Source of the DNA: Elusimicrobia bacterium GWC2_61_19
GTDB lineage: Bacteria > Elusimicrobiota > Elusimicrobia > Elusimicrobiales > UBA9959
Length of the DNA: 54,283 bases
Direction of reading: 5' to 3'
Assembly (NCBI GenBank): GCA_001799795.1
Contig: MGUD01000019.1
Location: 1-54,283 of the forward strand
Position numbers and translations under genes: made by a program. The notes beneath the pieces are model-generated. The model was given only the letters and a program-made list of their open reading frames with translations, was not told the DNA's origin and did not search any database. Of the stretch, positions 34,217 to 39,319 are shown in pieces; within the stretch, counting starts at the first letter, position 1; every line of letters starts with the position of its first letter.

Positions 34217-34290
34217 GCGGGCGTGGTTCAGTGGTAGAACGCGACCTTGCCAAGGTTGAGATGTGGGTTCGATTCCCATCGCCCGCTCCA
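34217..34290 (+). tRNA. tRNA-Gly(GCC), CCA encoded
   Basis: Cloverleaf GCGGGCG...CGACC-TTGCCAA-GGTTG...GGGTTCGATTCCC...CGCCCGCTCCA. Confidence 0.95.
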
Positions 34291-34303
34291 AATTTAAATG
34301 TGT

Positions 34304-34330
34304 AGGCCATCCTTTCAGGATGGCCTTTTC
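34304..34330 (+). terminator. Rho-independent terminator after tRNA-Gly
   Basis: AGGCCATCCtttcaGGATGGCCTTTTC. Confidence 0.8.
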
Positions 34331-34449
34331 CATATGCGGGCGATGGGAATATGTTCCTTATGGGGAGAGCTCGCTGCCGCTCGCATGTCGCCCGCTCGCT
34401 AAAAAACAAGCCATAACCGCGCAGATGTTCCCTGCGGACCTTTGTGGGG

Positions 34450-34478
34450 TTGCCATGTATATGTCGGTCTGCTATACT
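34450..34478 (+). promoter_or_regulatory. Promoter of the putative RiPP cassette
   Basis: TTGCCA-17 nt-TATACT. Confidence 0.6.
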
Positions 34479-34520
34479 CTATTTGGGTTTCAGCGAAATA
34501 CTGATTACATAGGGGTTCCA

Positions 34521-35336
34521 ATGAAAGATATTTTTAAAATAGCGGGTATGGTGGCAGCCTTACAACTGTTTGGTAACATGGTCGTTGCTGCAACGGAAGC
34601 TACGGCCCAACCAAATGCCGGCAAATCCGCGGCGGTGACCACTCCCATTGAGAGCGAAACGGAATCGGCTTTCGCCTCCGATCTTAGCGCTGTCCAGGAC
34701 TTGCTTAAAGGGATCTCGCGTGAAAGAAAAATGACTCCCGGCCAGAGCAAAGAGTATATCGCAAAAGAGATGGAAAAAGCCCGGAAGTTTAGCGAGTTCG
34801 CAAAAACCACCCTGATCCCGCATAGCCTTGAGATAACGAAGAAGATGAAGGAGCCGGACACCCTTTTAGCGGAAGGGAAAGCCATGGTCGAAAAGGACGG
34901 TTCTTCATGGCAGGGCTATGACTATATGGCCAGCGGAAGCGTATTAAAAAACGACCTGGACGGGGCCATGGCTAATTTCAAGAAAGCCGCCAAGTACGCT
35001 CCCGACCTTCAAAAAGATTGGTATAACTATATGCTGGGGGCCTGCTATGCGGGGAAGAAGGACGACAAGAAGGCTCTGGGCTATTATGAGCGGGTAATTA
35101 GCAGGAACGATAACTGGATGGCAGTAAAAGGTGCTTATTTGGCCGCCAGTATGACGCTTGTCGGAAAGGACCCGGAAAAATCTGTTGCTTATTTTGACAA
35201 AGGCTATTCGCTACATACCCAGAGCGAGCAGGCCGTTCTTCTGAAGGCCGGTGTTTGCTCCAAATTTCAGGGCCTCGCAAAAGGTCCGGAAGCTTGCGGC
35301 AACCAACCTTTGAAAGACAGCTCAAAAGTGAATTAG
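34521..35336 (+). CDS. Secreted TPR-like protein, first gene of RiPP cassette
   Basis: Signal peptide MKDIFKIAGMVAALQLFGNMVVAA; TPR-like A(N/L)xxY repeats; stop 12 nt before the precursor ATG. Confidence 0.7.
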   Translation: MKDIFKIAGMVAALQLFGNMVVAATEATAQPNAGKSAAVTTPIESETESAFASDLSAVQDLLKGISRERKMTPGQSKEYIAKEMEKARKFSEFAKTTLIPHSLEITKKMKEPDTLLAEGKAMVEKDGSSWQGYDYMASGSVLKNDLDGAMANFKKAAKYAPDLQKDWYNYMLGACYAGKKDDKKALGYYERVISRNDNWMAVKGAYLAASMTLVGKDPEKSVAYFDKGYSLHTQSEQAVLLKAGVCSKFQGLAKGPEACGNQPLKDSSKVN

Positions 35337-35348
35337 TAAGGAGATCAT

Positions 35349-35495
35349 ATGTCTAATCCGATGATAATTGAAACTAAGGGCTCCGGTTGTGCGGCCTGCG
35401 ACGATTGCGCCATGTGTGCGGCATGTATTCCCGGCATGAATATTGTCGGCCTTCTGGCCGGTATCGCTGGAGCCGGTACGATATCTAATTTCTAG
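35349..35495 (+). CDS. Putative RiPP precursor peptide, 48 aa, CxxCxxCxxCxxC core
   Basis: Translated by hand: MSNPMIIETKGSGCAACDDCAMCAACIPGMNIVGLLAGIAGAGTISNF*; RBS AAGGAG upstream; immediately upstream of radical SAM and ABC transporter genes; below size cutoff of supplied track. Confidence 0.8.
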   Translation: MSNPMIIETKGSGCAACDDCAMCAACIPGMNIVGLLAGIAGAGTISNF

Positions 35496-35557
35496 AAAAG
35501 AAATGGCCTCTTGTTGAAGCCGCTGTGGAGCGACTATTCCCCAAGTGCGCTAAACGA

Positions 35558-35594
35558 GAGGCGCGGGCTTCGCGATACGCGATACCTGCGCCTC
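35558..35594 (+). promoter_or_regulatory. Hairpin between precursor and radical SAM gene (possible read-through attenuator or mRNA stabiliser)
   Basis: GAGGCGC...TCGCG-ATA-CGCGA...GCGCCTC. Confidence 0.5.
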
Positions 35595-35649
35595 GGTCGC
35601 GGCGTTGCCGGGTTTAGAACCTGTGCAGCCTTCCTGATAAAAAAACCTT

Positions 35650-37026
35650 ATGAGAAAATATATCGCGCTGACGGAGGGGCTGACCTTCCAGAGGCATCCC
35701 ACCGGCGCTACTTTGTTCAAGGTCGTGAAGGGCAGCGAAGGCCGGACGAACAAGTTCCGTAAAACCGTGAACATGGACGCCGCCAGGATACTTGAGCTCT
35801 GCGACGGAATTGCGCTAAATGACCTGCTTGAAAAGCACAACAGATCATATCCTGCGAGCCAATTGACCGAAGAAGTAGCTAACGCATTCTTCGCCGCTGC
35901 AGAAAAAGAAGAAATGATCTTCGTAAGTTCGGAGAAAACCGCCTGCGCTGTGCGGTTCGCGGGGTCGTACGATCACTATTTCCCGCAGCACAGTTCCATA
36001 GAGCTTACCGATCAGTGCAATTACCGCTGTAAACACTGTTACCGTGAAAGTTCTCCGGAGCGGAACAACCGCCTTGATTTCGGAAAGGTCAAGGAGTATA
36101 TAGAAGCACTTTGGGCGAATGGCGGTTCGGTGCTGGAGTTAACGGGCGGTGAGCCGCTGTTGTACGAGCATTTTTTTGAGGTCGTGGATTTCGCATATCC
36201 GAAGATGGGGATGGTATGCATCCTGACGAACGGCTATTACCTTCAGGAAGACGCAGTAAAGCGGTTGCTGAAGTATAAAGACAAGCTCGTCTTTAACATC
36301 AGCCTGGACAGCCATAAACCGGAGTTCCACAACGCGTTCCGCGGCAAGAGCGACGCCTACGAAAAAACCCTGAACGCAATGCGGCTGCTCGGTGAAAACG
36401 GATTCGTATACCGCGTGGCCATGTCGGTTTCCAGCGAGAACAATTACGATATCGCCGAAACCATACAGTTGGCCAGAAAATGCGGGGCAAAACTGTTCGC
36501 TTATACGCATGTCACCAATGTCGGAAGAGGCGGGGATGTTCTGGCCGCCGGCCGGCAGATGACGGAGGCGGATGTGAGAAAGATGGTAGATTATGAACTC
36601 CGGGTGAGGGAAGAAAACAAGGATATAATGCATTTTCTCACCGTGACGCAGGTCAACGAACTGAAGGCGACCAACTGCGGAATTATCCACCGGTCGGTCA
36701 CGCTCGGGCCTGACGGGGTAATAAGGCCTTGCATAATGTTCGGGGGCGACGTTATAGAGATCGGCAACATAAACAGGCAATCGTACAGGGAAATATTCGA
36801 GGGCGGCATAGGAAAAGCTTTCGCTCACATGAGCGGGCCTAAAGCCGAGGTCTGCGGTGATTGCAAGCACCTGTTCTACTGCGGAAATTGTATTTTGAGG
36901 GGCATACAGAAGGGGATGGAGCTTAACGGCTGCAAATGGCTGGAAAAGACCGGAGTGCTGAAGTATATTAAAGGGGCGCCCCAGCGCAGAGTCTGCGGAA
37001 ACGCCCAGGAGCCTTGTAATGGATAA
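35650..37026 (+). CDS. Radical SAM/SPASM peptide-modifying enzyme with N-terminal PqqD-like (RRE) domain
   Basis: ELTDQCNYRCKHCYRE; LELTGGEPLL; SPASM-type CysX cluster (TNCG...GPDGVIRPCIMFG...EVCGDCKHLFYCGNCILRG...LNGCKW); N-terminal AARILELCDGIALNDLLEKH. Confidence 0.88.
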   Translation: MRKYIALTEGLTFQRHPTGATLFKVVKGSEGRTNKFRKTVNMDAARILELCDGIALNDLLEKHNRSYPASQLTEEVANAFFAAAEKEEMIFVSSEKTACAVRFAGSYDHYFPQHSSIELTDQCNYRCKHCYRESSPERNNRLDFGKVKEYIEALWANGGSVLELTGGEPLLYEHFFEVVDFAYPKMGMVCILTNGYYLQEDAVKRLLKYKDKLVFNISLDSHKPEFHNAFRGKSDAYEKTLNAMRLLGENGFVYRVAMSVSSENNYDIAETIQLARKCGAKLFAYTHVTNVGRGGDVLAAGRQMTEADVRKMVDYELRVREENKDIMHFLTVTQVNELKATNCGIIHRSVTLGPDGVIRPCIMFGGDVIEIGNINRQSYREIFEGGIGKAFAHMSGPKAEVCGDCKHLFYCGNCILRGIQKGMELNGCKWLEKTGVLKYIKGAPQRRVCGNAQEPCNG

Positions 37027-37972
37027 TATCCTGGAAGTCGAAGGCTTGGTAAAGAAATACACGGCCGATAGCGGCGTGCTGGGAGTTAGTTTTTCTTTAA
37101 AGCCTGGCCGCATACTGGCTTACCTCGGTCATAACGGCGCGGGGAAGACCACAACCGTTAGGGCCCTGCTCGGGTTGCTGAGAATGGACTCGGGCCGCGT
37201 TTTATACGCCGGCAGGGAGTATGATACGTTTTCGCAGGAATATGACGGTGTTCGCCGGGACTACGGGGTGGCAATGGATTCCCCGGGCTTTTATCAGAAC
37301 ATGTCCGCGCTGAAGAATCTTGAGCTATTCTCAGGGTTCTATATGCTGACGGGGCCGGAATTTACGCAAAGGGCAGAGGTTCTTCTTAAAAAAATGGGGC
37401 TGTATGAGGTCCGGTCCAACCCTGTTAAGACATATTCAAAGGGTATGGCTCAAAAACTGGCTCTGGTCCGTGCCCTGCTGCACCGTCCCAAAGTGCTGTT
37501 CCTCGATGAGCCGATGAGCGGCCTGGACCCCGAGGCCAGGATCCTCGTGCGCGAGCTGCTCAGGGAGCTTGCGGAGAAGGATAATGTGGCGGTTTTGCTG
37601 ACATCTCACGACCTTAACGAGGTGGAACAAATTGCCGACGATATCGTTATATTAGAGAAGGGCCGCGTCATGCTTTCGGGAGGATTGGAGACTCTTAAGG
37701 CCTCGTTCCTGAAGGCTTTCGTTTATCTGCTGGTCCTGCCGGGCCGGCCTTCCGCCGAGGCGGTAGCCGCCATAGCCGCGGACCTTAAAGCTGATAAATA
37801 TTTATTCGAAGGGGATGCGCTGCGCGTAGAGCGTGCGGACGCGCTTGAGCTTACGGACGCCGCGGCCGCATGCGCCAAAGCCGGCCTGAAACTCGCGGAG
37901 TTCAAGCGGGCTACGGCCGGGCTTGAACAGATATATTTTGAATCCATCAACCGCAATGAGCATAAAGATTGA
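37019..37972 (+). CDS. ABC transporter ATP-binding protein
   Basis: GHNGAGKTTTVRALLGLL; YSKGMAQKLALVRALLHRPKVLFLDEPMSGLDP. Confidence 0.93.
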   Translation: MDNILEVEGLVKKYTADSGVLGVSFSLKPGRILAYLGHNGAGKTTTVRALLGLLRMDSGRVLYAGREYDTFSQEYDGVRRDYGVAMDSPGFYQNMSALKNLELFSGFYMLTGPEFTQRAEVLLKKMGLYEVRSNPVKTYSKGMAQKLALVRALLHRPKVLFLDEPMSGLDPEARILVRELLRELAEKDNVAVLLTSHDLNEVEQIADDIVILEKGRVMLSGGLETLKASFLKAFVYLLVLPGRPSAEAVAAIAADLKADKYLFEGDALRVERADALELTDAAAACAKAGLKLAEFKRATAGLEQIYFESINRNEHKD

Positions 37973-38630
37973 TCCCGCGCTTTTCCGCTTCGAGCTGGAG
38001 CAGCTTTTTGCGAGCAGGCAGGGCTGGTATCTGATGGCGCTCGTCCAGTTCGTGCTCTGGATGTCCGCGCACAAATCCTCTGCCGGCCTTTACGTGGGGC
38101 TTCCTGATTATTGGTCCAACTATATACTGATAAACGGCTTTTGCCAGAGCCTTATTCTTAACCTGCTAGTGGCCGGCGAACTTTTGATAAAACCAAAAAA
38201 CGAGAAGACGATAGAAATGATGCTGGCTTCCGGCGTAAGCCTGCAAACGATAGCCGCGACCAACGTGGCGGTATGTGCCTCTTACAACGCGTTCTCGCTG
38301 CTGCTGGCGTTCTGGATACTGGGTCATTTTACGATAAAGCCTTCGTTCACGGCCGTTCACGCCCTCTCTTTCTTGGTGGTTATGGCGCTCAATCTTGTCA
38401 CCTTGGTTTGTGCCGGCTTTATCGCGCTGCAGACCAGGTACGGTTCGCGGTTATCCGGTTTCTTTCTGCTCTTATCGGTTGCGGTCAGCATCGCTGCCGC
38501 CGTCTTCGGTTTTTCTCTTAATACGTCTCCGTCCTTCCAGTTCGGGTTGCTTTTCGCGGCCTGTATTCTGGCAGGTCTGTCCCTTCTCCTGTTCCGTAAA
38601 TTAGACAGGGAGAAGGTGATTCTTTCATGA
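37956..38630 (+). CDS. ABC-2-type transporter permease subunit
   Basis: Multi-TM protein, translationally coupled to ATPase. Confidence 0.7.
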   Translation: MSIKIDPALFRFELEQLFASRQGWYLMALVQFVLWMSAHKSSAGLYVGLPDYWSNYILINGFCQSLILNLLVAGELLIKPKNEKTIEMMLASGVSLQTIAATNVAVCASYNAFSLLLAFWILGHFTIKPSFTAVHALSFLVVMALNLVTLVCAGFIALQTRYGSRLSGFFLLLSVAVSIAAAVFGFSLNTSPSFQFGLLFAACILAGLSLLLFRKLDREKVILS

Positions 38631-39319
38631 AATACACGGGCACTTTTTTCCGGCTGACAGTGAAGGAACTGGGTTCTTCTTACCAGTTGTATTTATCCGT
38701 TGCGCTGCTCTCGGGCATCTTTTATCTGTTGCTGTCCAAAATAGGACCCGCATTGGCCGATCCAAAAGCGGCAGGCTTGGCGGCCGGACAACTTGTTTAT
38801 AGCACGCTTTCGAGCGGAATTGTTCTGGTTTTCTTGTTTTTGCAGCCGGTATTTCTTTCTGAGAAGCGGGAAGGAACGATAATTCCGCTATTATGCTCTC
38901 CCGCGGGCGCGAATGACCTTTTGTTCGGCAAATGCGCCGGCGTGACCGCGGTCGCCATGGCCGGGTCCTTGCTCTCCCTGGCTTTTCCTTTGGCGTTTTC
39001 CCCGGTCATTTTCAAAGCGATGCTCGCCCCCGGGGCTGTCGCTGCCGTATTTATAGTTTCCGGAATAGTGTTTTCGTATGTGGCAATTACAGGCATGCTG
39101 CTGCTGTGCCTATCGAACGTGAAAGTGGTTTATCCGGCGCTTTTCTTTATGAATTACGTCCCGGTAGCGCTTAACCGGTACAGTAAAGGCTATATGCAAG
39201 CTCATGGTTTAGGCGGCGCTAATTGGCTCCATCTCCTTAGCCTTGCAATCTTTCTGCTTTTCGCCGCAAGCATGCACAGGTTCTACTTCACGAAACAGCG
39301 AATAGTAAGATCCGCGTAA
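38627..39319 (+). CDS. ABC-2-type transporter permease subunit
   Basis: Multi-TM protein; EKREGTIIPLLCSPAGANDLLFGK typical of ABC-2 membrane proteins; 4-nt overlap. Confidence 0.75.
   Translation: MKYTGTFFRLTVKELGSSYQLYLSVALLSGIFYLLLSKIGPALADPKAAGLAAGQLVYSTLSSGIVLVFLFLQPVFLSEKREGTIIPLLCSPAGANDLLFGKCAGVTAVAMAGSLLSLAFPLAFSPVIFKAMLAPGAVAAVFIVSGIVFSYVAITGMLLLCLSNVKVVYPALFFMNYVPVALNRYSKGYMQAHGLGGANWLHLLSLAIFLLFAASMHRFYFTKQRIVRSA

What the first reader, a model, noticed from the sequence alone, without database searches (positions are those of the whole stretch)
35349..35495. Unannotated 48-aa peptide with a perfect five-cysteine CxxCxxCxxCxxC array and a Gly-rich hydrophobic tail
MSNPMIIETKGSGCAACDDCAMCAACIPGMNIVGLLAGIAGAGTISNF has Cys at 14, 17, 20, 23 and 26, each separated by exactly two residues. 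A short 13-residue leader and a hydrophobic 22-residue tail flank the array. It is missing from the supplied ORF track because it is below the length cutoff. Subtilosin A-like sactipeptides also place clustered Cys before a hydrophobic acceptor region. Inference: five Cys donors may crosslink to residues in IPGMNIVGLLAGIAGAGTISNF. GSG is a possible leader-core boundary, although no classical GG protease site is obvious.
Basis: partly seen in the sequence, partly recalled or inferred. Interest (0 to 1): 0.9.

Follow-up and report, generated by a model that had tools for sequence, protein, structure and literature searches.

The report
Five-cysteine sactipeptide precursor in Elusimicrobiota
A bacterium from a little-studied uncultured group carries a tiny gene for a peptide with five evenly spaced cysteines, next to the enzyme that probably cross-links it into a hairpin-shaped antibiotic-like molecule; it is a distant relative of thurincin H and estercticin A with one more cysteine than thurincin H.

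Summary
The 48-aa ORF with the CxxCxxCxxCxxC array is real. It has a ribosome-binding site (AAGGAG) and lies 154 bp upstream of an AlbA-like radical SAM/SPASM enzyme, followed by an ABC ATPase and two permeases. The window is Elusimicrobiota. A profile search of 342 genomes of the phylum found strong family members (E<=3.4e-11) in only eight genomes, every one directly upstream of an orthologous radical SAM gene; none stood alone. The AlbA model (E<=1e-45) picks out the same eight of 59 family genomes. The array also occurs upstream of AlbA-like enzymes on a Nanoarchaeota contig and a Clostridium estertheticum plasmid. That last peptide is published: estercticin A, a sactipeptide detected by mass spectrometry (PMC8792950). 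Its enzyme is the sister of the thurincin H maturase. Thurincin H has CxxCxxCxxC and four nested S-C-alpha bridges, spaced by three residues on both strands.

Best reading: a sactipeptide precursor of the thurincin H/estercticin A kind with a fifth donor cysteine, on a low-GC island beside tRNA-Gly. Bond chemistry, leader cut and activity are inferred. New member of a known kind; a dedicated secreted TPR protein and the taxonomic spread are new.

The parts
34217..34290 (+). tRNA-Gly (GCC), left border of the low-GC island that holds the cluster
   Evidence: ARAGORN; GC falls from about 0.60-0.63 to 0.50-0.55 between roughly 34.3 and 39.3 kb
34521..35336 (+). Secreted TPR protein (271 aa; N-terminal hydrophobic stretch looks like a signal peptide); dedicated partner of the cluster, role unknown
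   Evidence: PF07719 TPR_2 4.4e-7; homologues 29-55% identical in five other clusters; in 151 phylum genomes found only in cluster-bearing ones
35349..35495 (+). Precursor peptide, 48 aa, CxxCxxCxxCxxC
   Evidence: ORF and ribosome-binding site; conserved family
35349..35378 (+). Predicted leader (residues 1-10, MSNPMIIETK)
   Evidence: Inference: thurincin H and estercticin A mature peptides both start three residues before the first Cys
35379..35492 (+). Predicted core (residues 11-48): donors C14, C17, C20, C23, C26; predicted acceptors five of V33, L36, I39, A42, I45, F48
   Evidence: Inference from thurincin H connectivity C4-S28, C7-T25, C10-T22, C13-N19 (PMC8172795) and the period-3 tail pattern
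35496..35649 (+). Intergenic stretch with a strong GC-rich hairpin, possible partial terminator between precursor and enzyme
   Evidence: RNA fold -62.5 kcal/mol, z -3.56; function inferred
35650..37026 (+). AlbA-like radical SAM/SPASM maturase (458 aa) with N-terminal RRE-like fold, CxxxCxxC at 123/127/130 and seven SPASM cysteines
   Evidence: NF012164 AlbA 212 bits; PF04055 and PF13186; structure matches SkfB, SuiB, CteB; Cys conservation 10/10
37019..37972 (+). ABC transporter ATPase (DrrA-like)
   Evidence: TIGR01188 4e-61; conserved in most clusters
37956..38630 (+). ABC transporter membrane protein 1
   Evidence: Homologue next to the ATPase in four other clusters
38627..39319 (+). ABC transporter membrane protein 2 (ABC2-type)
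   Evidence: PF12730 4.5e-4, below cut-off; synteny

Best explanation
The peptide is the precursor of a radical-SAM-made thioether peptide (sactipeptide) of the thurincin H/estercticin A kind. The leader (about residues 1-10) binds the RRE-like N-terminal domain of the AlbA-like enzyme. The enzyme uses SAM and its SPASM clusters to join Cys thiols to alpha-carbons of tail residues spaced three apart, giving a nested hairpin ladder with up to five rungs. An unlinked protease removes the leader, and the DrrA-like ABC system exports the product and/or protects the producer. Shown here: gene, conservation, invariant enzyme linkage, enzyme family and fold, homology to estercticin A. Inferred: S-C-alpha chemistry, bridge positions, leader cut, export role and antibacterial activity.
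For: All strong family members in 342 phylum genomes (12 matches, 8 genomes, E<=3.4e-11) lie directly upstream of the radical SAM gene; the next match is E 7.8e-4 and partial. The AlbA HMM at E<=1e-45 finds exactly these 8 of 59 family genomes. AlbA is the top curated family for all eight orthologues, about 100 bits above the next for the window enzyme. The enzyme model matches SkfB 1.8e-20, SuiB and CteB, all RiPP maturases. Radical SAM and SPASM cysteines are conserved in 10 of 10. Estercticin A precursor MSNPVIKPMELNCWACLGCVGCAACVFTLALASAMSALTGSNR aligns to the family profile at E 1.2e-6 over leader and array; its mass was reported as the core minus 6 H (PMC8792950), and my recalculation agrees within 4 ppm. 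Its enzyme is sister to the thurincin H maturase (100/99). Thurincin H: C4-S28, C7-T25, C10-T22, C13-N19, all sums 32. In the window, sums of 59 or 62 give V33/L36/I39/A42/I45/F48, free of Gly; the Nanoarchaeota peptide ends FxxFxxFxxW.
Against: No product has been seen from any Elusimicrobiota member. No leader peptidase lies in the cluster. Estercticin A was reported with three crosslinks and no MS/MS, so five rungs are not established; disulfides could account for part of the mass loss. The tail periodicity test is weak (p 0.09 on all, 0.015 on representatives, several tests made). One member (CG08) has only four Cys. G181 has an orthologous enzyme but no array peptide was found nearby. The direct profile match to thurincin H is not significant (prob 11.8).
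Confidence: 0.82

Rival explanations
1. The enzyme makes a different radical crosslink: beta/gamma thioethers (ranthipeptide), epimers, or a mix of thioethers and disulfides.
For: All AlbA-model scores are far below the equivalog cut-off of 850 bits, so transfer of exact chemistry is not secured. Estercticin A's three crosslinks with five Cys leave room for disulfides.
Against: AlbA, SkfB and StsB (alpha-thioether makers) score at or near the top; the ranthipeptide maturase PapB is not among the best 25 for the window enzyme. The maturase of the thurincin H/thuricin 17 cluster, whose product has S-C-alpha bonds, aligns over most of its length at 25% identity.
Confidence: 0.12
2. The peptide is a small Fe-S or metal-binding protein (ferredoxin-like array).
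For: CxxCxxCxxC resembles ferredoxin ligation; weak profile hits to 4Fe-4S proteins in the PDB (E 0.5-7).
Against: No match in Pfam or NCBIfam; no occurrence away from the radical SAM gene in 342 genomes; Gly/Ala-rich hydrophobic tail; homology to estercticin A.
Confidence: 0.03
3. The product is a modified peptide with a non-antibiotic role (signal, cofactor or surface peptide) for which the secreted TPR protein is the receptor or carrier.
For: The TPR protein is specific to the clusters; no immunity gene other than the ABC system is evident.
Against: The closest relatives are bacteriocin clusters on plasmids; patchy distribution, tandem precursor copies and island location fit antagonism.
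Confidence: 0.2
4. Chance ORF, not translated.
For: Short; no Ribo-seq.
Against: Conserved array and leader across ten loci, ribosome-binding sites, third-position substitutions, zero hits in Markov controls.
Confidence: 0.01

Closest known systems
Estercticin A (Clostridium estertheticum CF004, BBGC7 of PMC8792950; precursor WP_259472665.1, enzyme WP_220713904.1)
   Same: MSNPxI leader start; CxxCxxCxxCxxC at nearly the same distance from the N terminus; AlbA-like enzyme downstream; ABC transporter
   Different: 28% identity between enzymes over 71% of the length; different tail; a single long ABC ATP-binding protein rather than DrrA-like ATPase plus two permeases; no TPR protein listed; plasmid-borne in Bacillota
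Thurincin H / thuricin 17 (tucA/thnA and its radical SAM enzyme, Bacillus thuringiensis)
   Same: Short leader, CxxCxxCxxC, hydrophobic acceptor tail, tandem precursor copies, radical SAM maturase of the same AlbA-like group, ABC genes
   Different: Four Cys instead of five; enzymes 25% identical; no significant precursor-precursor profile match
Subtilosin A / AlbA
   Same: AlbA is the best curated model for the enzyme; short leader; nested hairpin logic
   Different: Three Cys in another spacing; PF11420 and direct comparison do not match; no AlbE/F-type peptidases found in the cluster
SkfB / sporulation killing factor
   Same: Best structural match of the enzyme (6efn)
   Different: One thioether plus one disulfide in a 26-residue peptide (PMC8172795); different precursor
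SCIFF/ranthipeptides (CteB, PapB)
   Same: Cys-rich precursor plus SPASM enzyme
   Different: Those enzyme families score far lower; other precursor layout

Membership tests
Sactipeptides | Cys S to alpha-carbon thioether in the product | not testable with these tools
   Needs MS/MS or NMR
Sactipeptides | Short precursor with Cys donors, leader N-terminal, acceptor region C-terminal | tested here: met
Sactipeptides | Adjacent radical SAM/SPASM maturase of the sactisynthase group | tested here: met
   AlbA top model in 8/8; SkfB, SuiB, CteB folds; invariant linkage
Sactipeptides | RRE domain in the maturase | tested here: inconclusive
   Model shows three strands and three helices at residues 12-93, most of it at high confidence, in line with an RRE; no Pfam PqqD hit
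Sactipeptides | Transporter and protease genes | tested here: inconclusive
   ABC ATPase and two permeases present; no protease in the cluster
Estercticin A group | MSNPxI leader plus CxxCxxCxxCxxC upstream of an AlbA-like enzyme | tested here: met
   hhalign E 1.2e-6, prob 90.8
Thurincin H | Significant precursor homology | tested here: not met
   hhalign prob 11.8, E 0.0025; the works-like claim rests on spacing and related enzymes
Subtilosin A (PF11420) | Pfam Subtilosin_A model match | tested here: not met
   Window peptide not among matches at E<=10
AlbA equivalog NF012164 | Score above 850 bits | tested here: not met
   212 bits: AlbA-like, not AlbA

The most novel reading that the evidence does not exclude
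A distinct clade of sactipeptides with a five-rung nested thioether ladder, shared by Elusimicrobiota, a Nanoarchaeota lineage and Clostridium, in which the Elusimicrobiota branch has recruited a dedicated secreted TPR protein for export, maturation or self-protection.
Probability: 0.35. Interest if true: 0.65.

Novelty: new member of a known kind. Interest (0 to 1): 0.5.

Why it matters
In the open-access papers searched I found no description of sactipeptides in Elusimicrobiota or in DPANN archaea, and no structurally characterised one with five donor cysteines. The perfect i, i+3 array, with varied tails in a dozen natural sequences, gives a clean test set for how an AlbA-like enzyme chooses acceptors and counts rungs. 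It also ties estercticin A to a wider family and offers a new place to look for bacteriocins in uncultured bacteria.

Tried and rejected
Subtilosin A homology: tested by Pfam PF11420 and by direct profile comparison, not met. Ferredoxin-like peptide: only weak PDB hits. A single-sequence scan of genome contigs found nothing; the alignment scan succeeded. Profile searches of 392 genomes of the class of a Clostridium and 380 genomes of the archaeal phylum gave no further members except the known Nanoarchaeota one, so the family looks rare; the Clostridium search had no positive control. Viral contigs gave only distant enzymes. Tail periodicity of three was tested against 2, 4 and 5: suggestive, not decisive. 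An attachment-site duplicate of the tRNA-Gly 3' end was sought in the window and not found. Papers on Elusimicrobia sactipeptides: none on the subject found.

Full report
Observation. The ORF 35349-35495 (+) encodes the 48-residue peptide as written, with five cysteines exactly three apart. It starts with ATG behind AAGGAG. Markov windows of the same composition never produced such an ORF (0 in 100).

Surroundings. Reading along the + strand: tRNA-Gly (34217-34290), a secreted TPR protein (34521-35336), the peptide, a 154-base gap with a strong hairpin (z -3.56), a radical SAM/SPASM enzyme (35650-37026), a DrrA-like ABC ATPase (37019-37972) and two membrane proteins (37956-38630, 38627-39319), then an aspartate carbamoyltransferase gene on the other strand. 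GC content drops from about 0.60-0.63 to 0.50-0.55 over this block only, which suggests a horizontally gained island beside a tRNA. In two relatives (GWA2_61_42 and GWB2_63_22) the cluster lies close to tRNA-Met.

The enzyme. Its best curated match is AlbA, the subtilosin maturase (212 bits; next 111), though far under the 850-bit equivalog cut-off. AlbA is also the top family across all eight orthologues. Radical SAM cysteines 123/127/130 and seven SPASM cysteines are conserved in ten of ten homologues, including the archaeal and clostridial ones. An AlphaFold2 model (mean pLDDT 76) has an N-terminal three-strand, three-helix unit of the RRE type (my reading of the secondary structure) and best matches SkfB (1.8e-20), SuiB and CteB in the PDB.

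The family. The window belongs to Elusimicrobiota: relatives are named. Related peptides were found in G014 (two copies), G022 (three), G004, G027, G008 (two), G073 and G082, always immediately upstream of the radical SAM gene. A profile of them searched against 342 genomes of the phylum gave 12 matches at E<=3.4e-11 in exactly these genomes plus the window's; the next best was 7.8e-4 and partial. The AlbA model at E<=1e-45 independently picked the same eight of 59 genomes in the family. Cys14/17/20/23 are invariant; Cys26 is missing only in CG08, which has four. The ATPase is kept in most clusters and both permeases in several. The TPR protein is conserved (29-55%) and, in a sample of 151 genomes, found only where the cluster is.

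Beyond the phylum. A Nanoarchaeota contig (L052) carries MPLWCVGCAACAICTLCNWWDPNANAAGFVGFVAFTAW upstream of an AlbA-like enzyme (30% identity) and an ABC pair. A Clostridium estertheticum plasmid carries MSNPVIKPMELNCWACLGCVGCAACVFTLALASAMSALTGSNR upstream of an AlbA-like enzyme. The latter is the estercticin A precursor of PMC8792950, for which high-resolution MS of the culture indicated the core ELNC...SNR with three crosslinks; no MS/MS was possible. The reported formula is the linear core minus 6 H, and the stated ion agrees within 4 ppm. The family profile matches this precursor at E 1.2e-6, over leader and array, but does not match subtilosin or, significantly, thurincin H.

Mechanism. 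The estercticin enzyme is sister to the enzyme of the thurincin H/thuricin 17 cluster (100/99), and the Elusimicrobiota and archaeal enzymes form a neighbouring group (89/96) in a small tree with long branches. Thurincin H has CxxCxxCxxC and bridges C4-S28, C7-T25, C10-T22, C13-N19 (PMC8172795): donors and acceptors both step by three, so each pair sums to 32. Applying the same rule to the window peptide puts acceptors in one register of the tail, V33, L36, I39, A42, I45, F48, with no glycine among them; the archaeal tail reads FxxFxxFxxW in the matching register. A permutation test of the period-3 pattern is only suggestive. I therefore propose a nested hairpin ladder of up to five rungs; the donors and the enzyme class are well supported, the acceptors are a prediction.

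Leader and export. Both thurincin H and estercticin A mature peptides begin three residues before the first Cys, so the window core would begin at G11 (GSGC...). No protease lies in the cluster; one divergent relative (G181) has a subtilase next to its enzyme but no array peptide that I could find. The DrrA-like ABC system may export the product or protect the producer, and the TPR protein may assist; both are inference.

Verdict. The peptide is a precursor of a sactipeptide of a known kind, in a phylum where I found none described in the papers searched, with one donor more than thurincin H and a new dedicated partner gene. The five-Cys array itself has a published precedent in estercticin A.

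Noticed in passing
34217-39319: Cluster sits on a low-GC block directly after tRNA-Gly, suggesting an island; no attachment-site repeat of the tRNA end found elsewhere in the window.
   Followed up: partly
34336-34349: GCGGGCGATGGGAA is an exact inverted copy of 14 bases of the tRNA-Gly 3' part (34273-34286), just downstream of the tRNA.
   Followed up: no
35496-35649: Very stable hairpin between precursor and enzyme genes (z -3.56), a candidate attenuator setting the precursor to enzyme ratio; the gap is shorter in relatives.
   Followed up: no
L052:3616-4737: A second radical SAM gene lies on the opposite strand just after the ABC genes of the Nanoarchaeota cluster.
   Followed up: no
L042:7077-8267: In G181 the orthologous enzyme is followed by a subtilase (PF00082) and has no visible Cys-array peptide; its substrate is unknown.
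   Followed up: partly
L022:3552-9955: GWB2_63_22 has three tandem precursors (one interrupted by a run of N) and, in place of the DrrA-like ABC genes, a 548-aa protein without Pfam match after the enzyme and an exporter-type ABC protein upstream.
   Followed up: no
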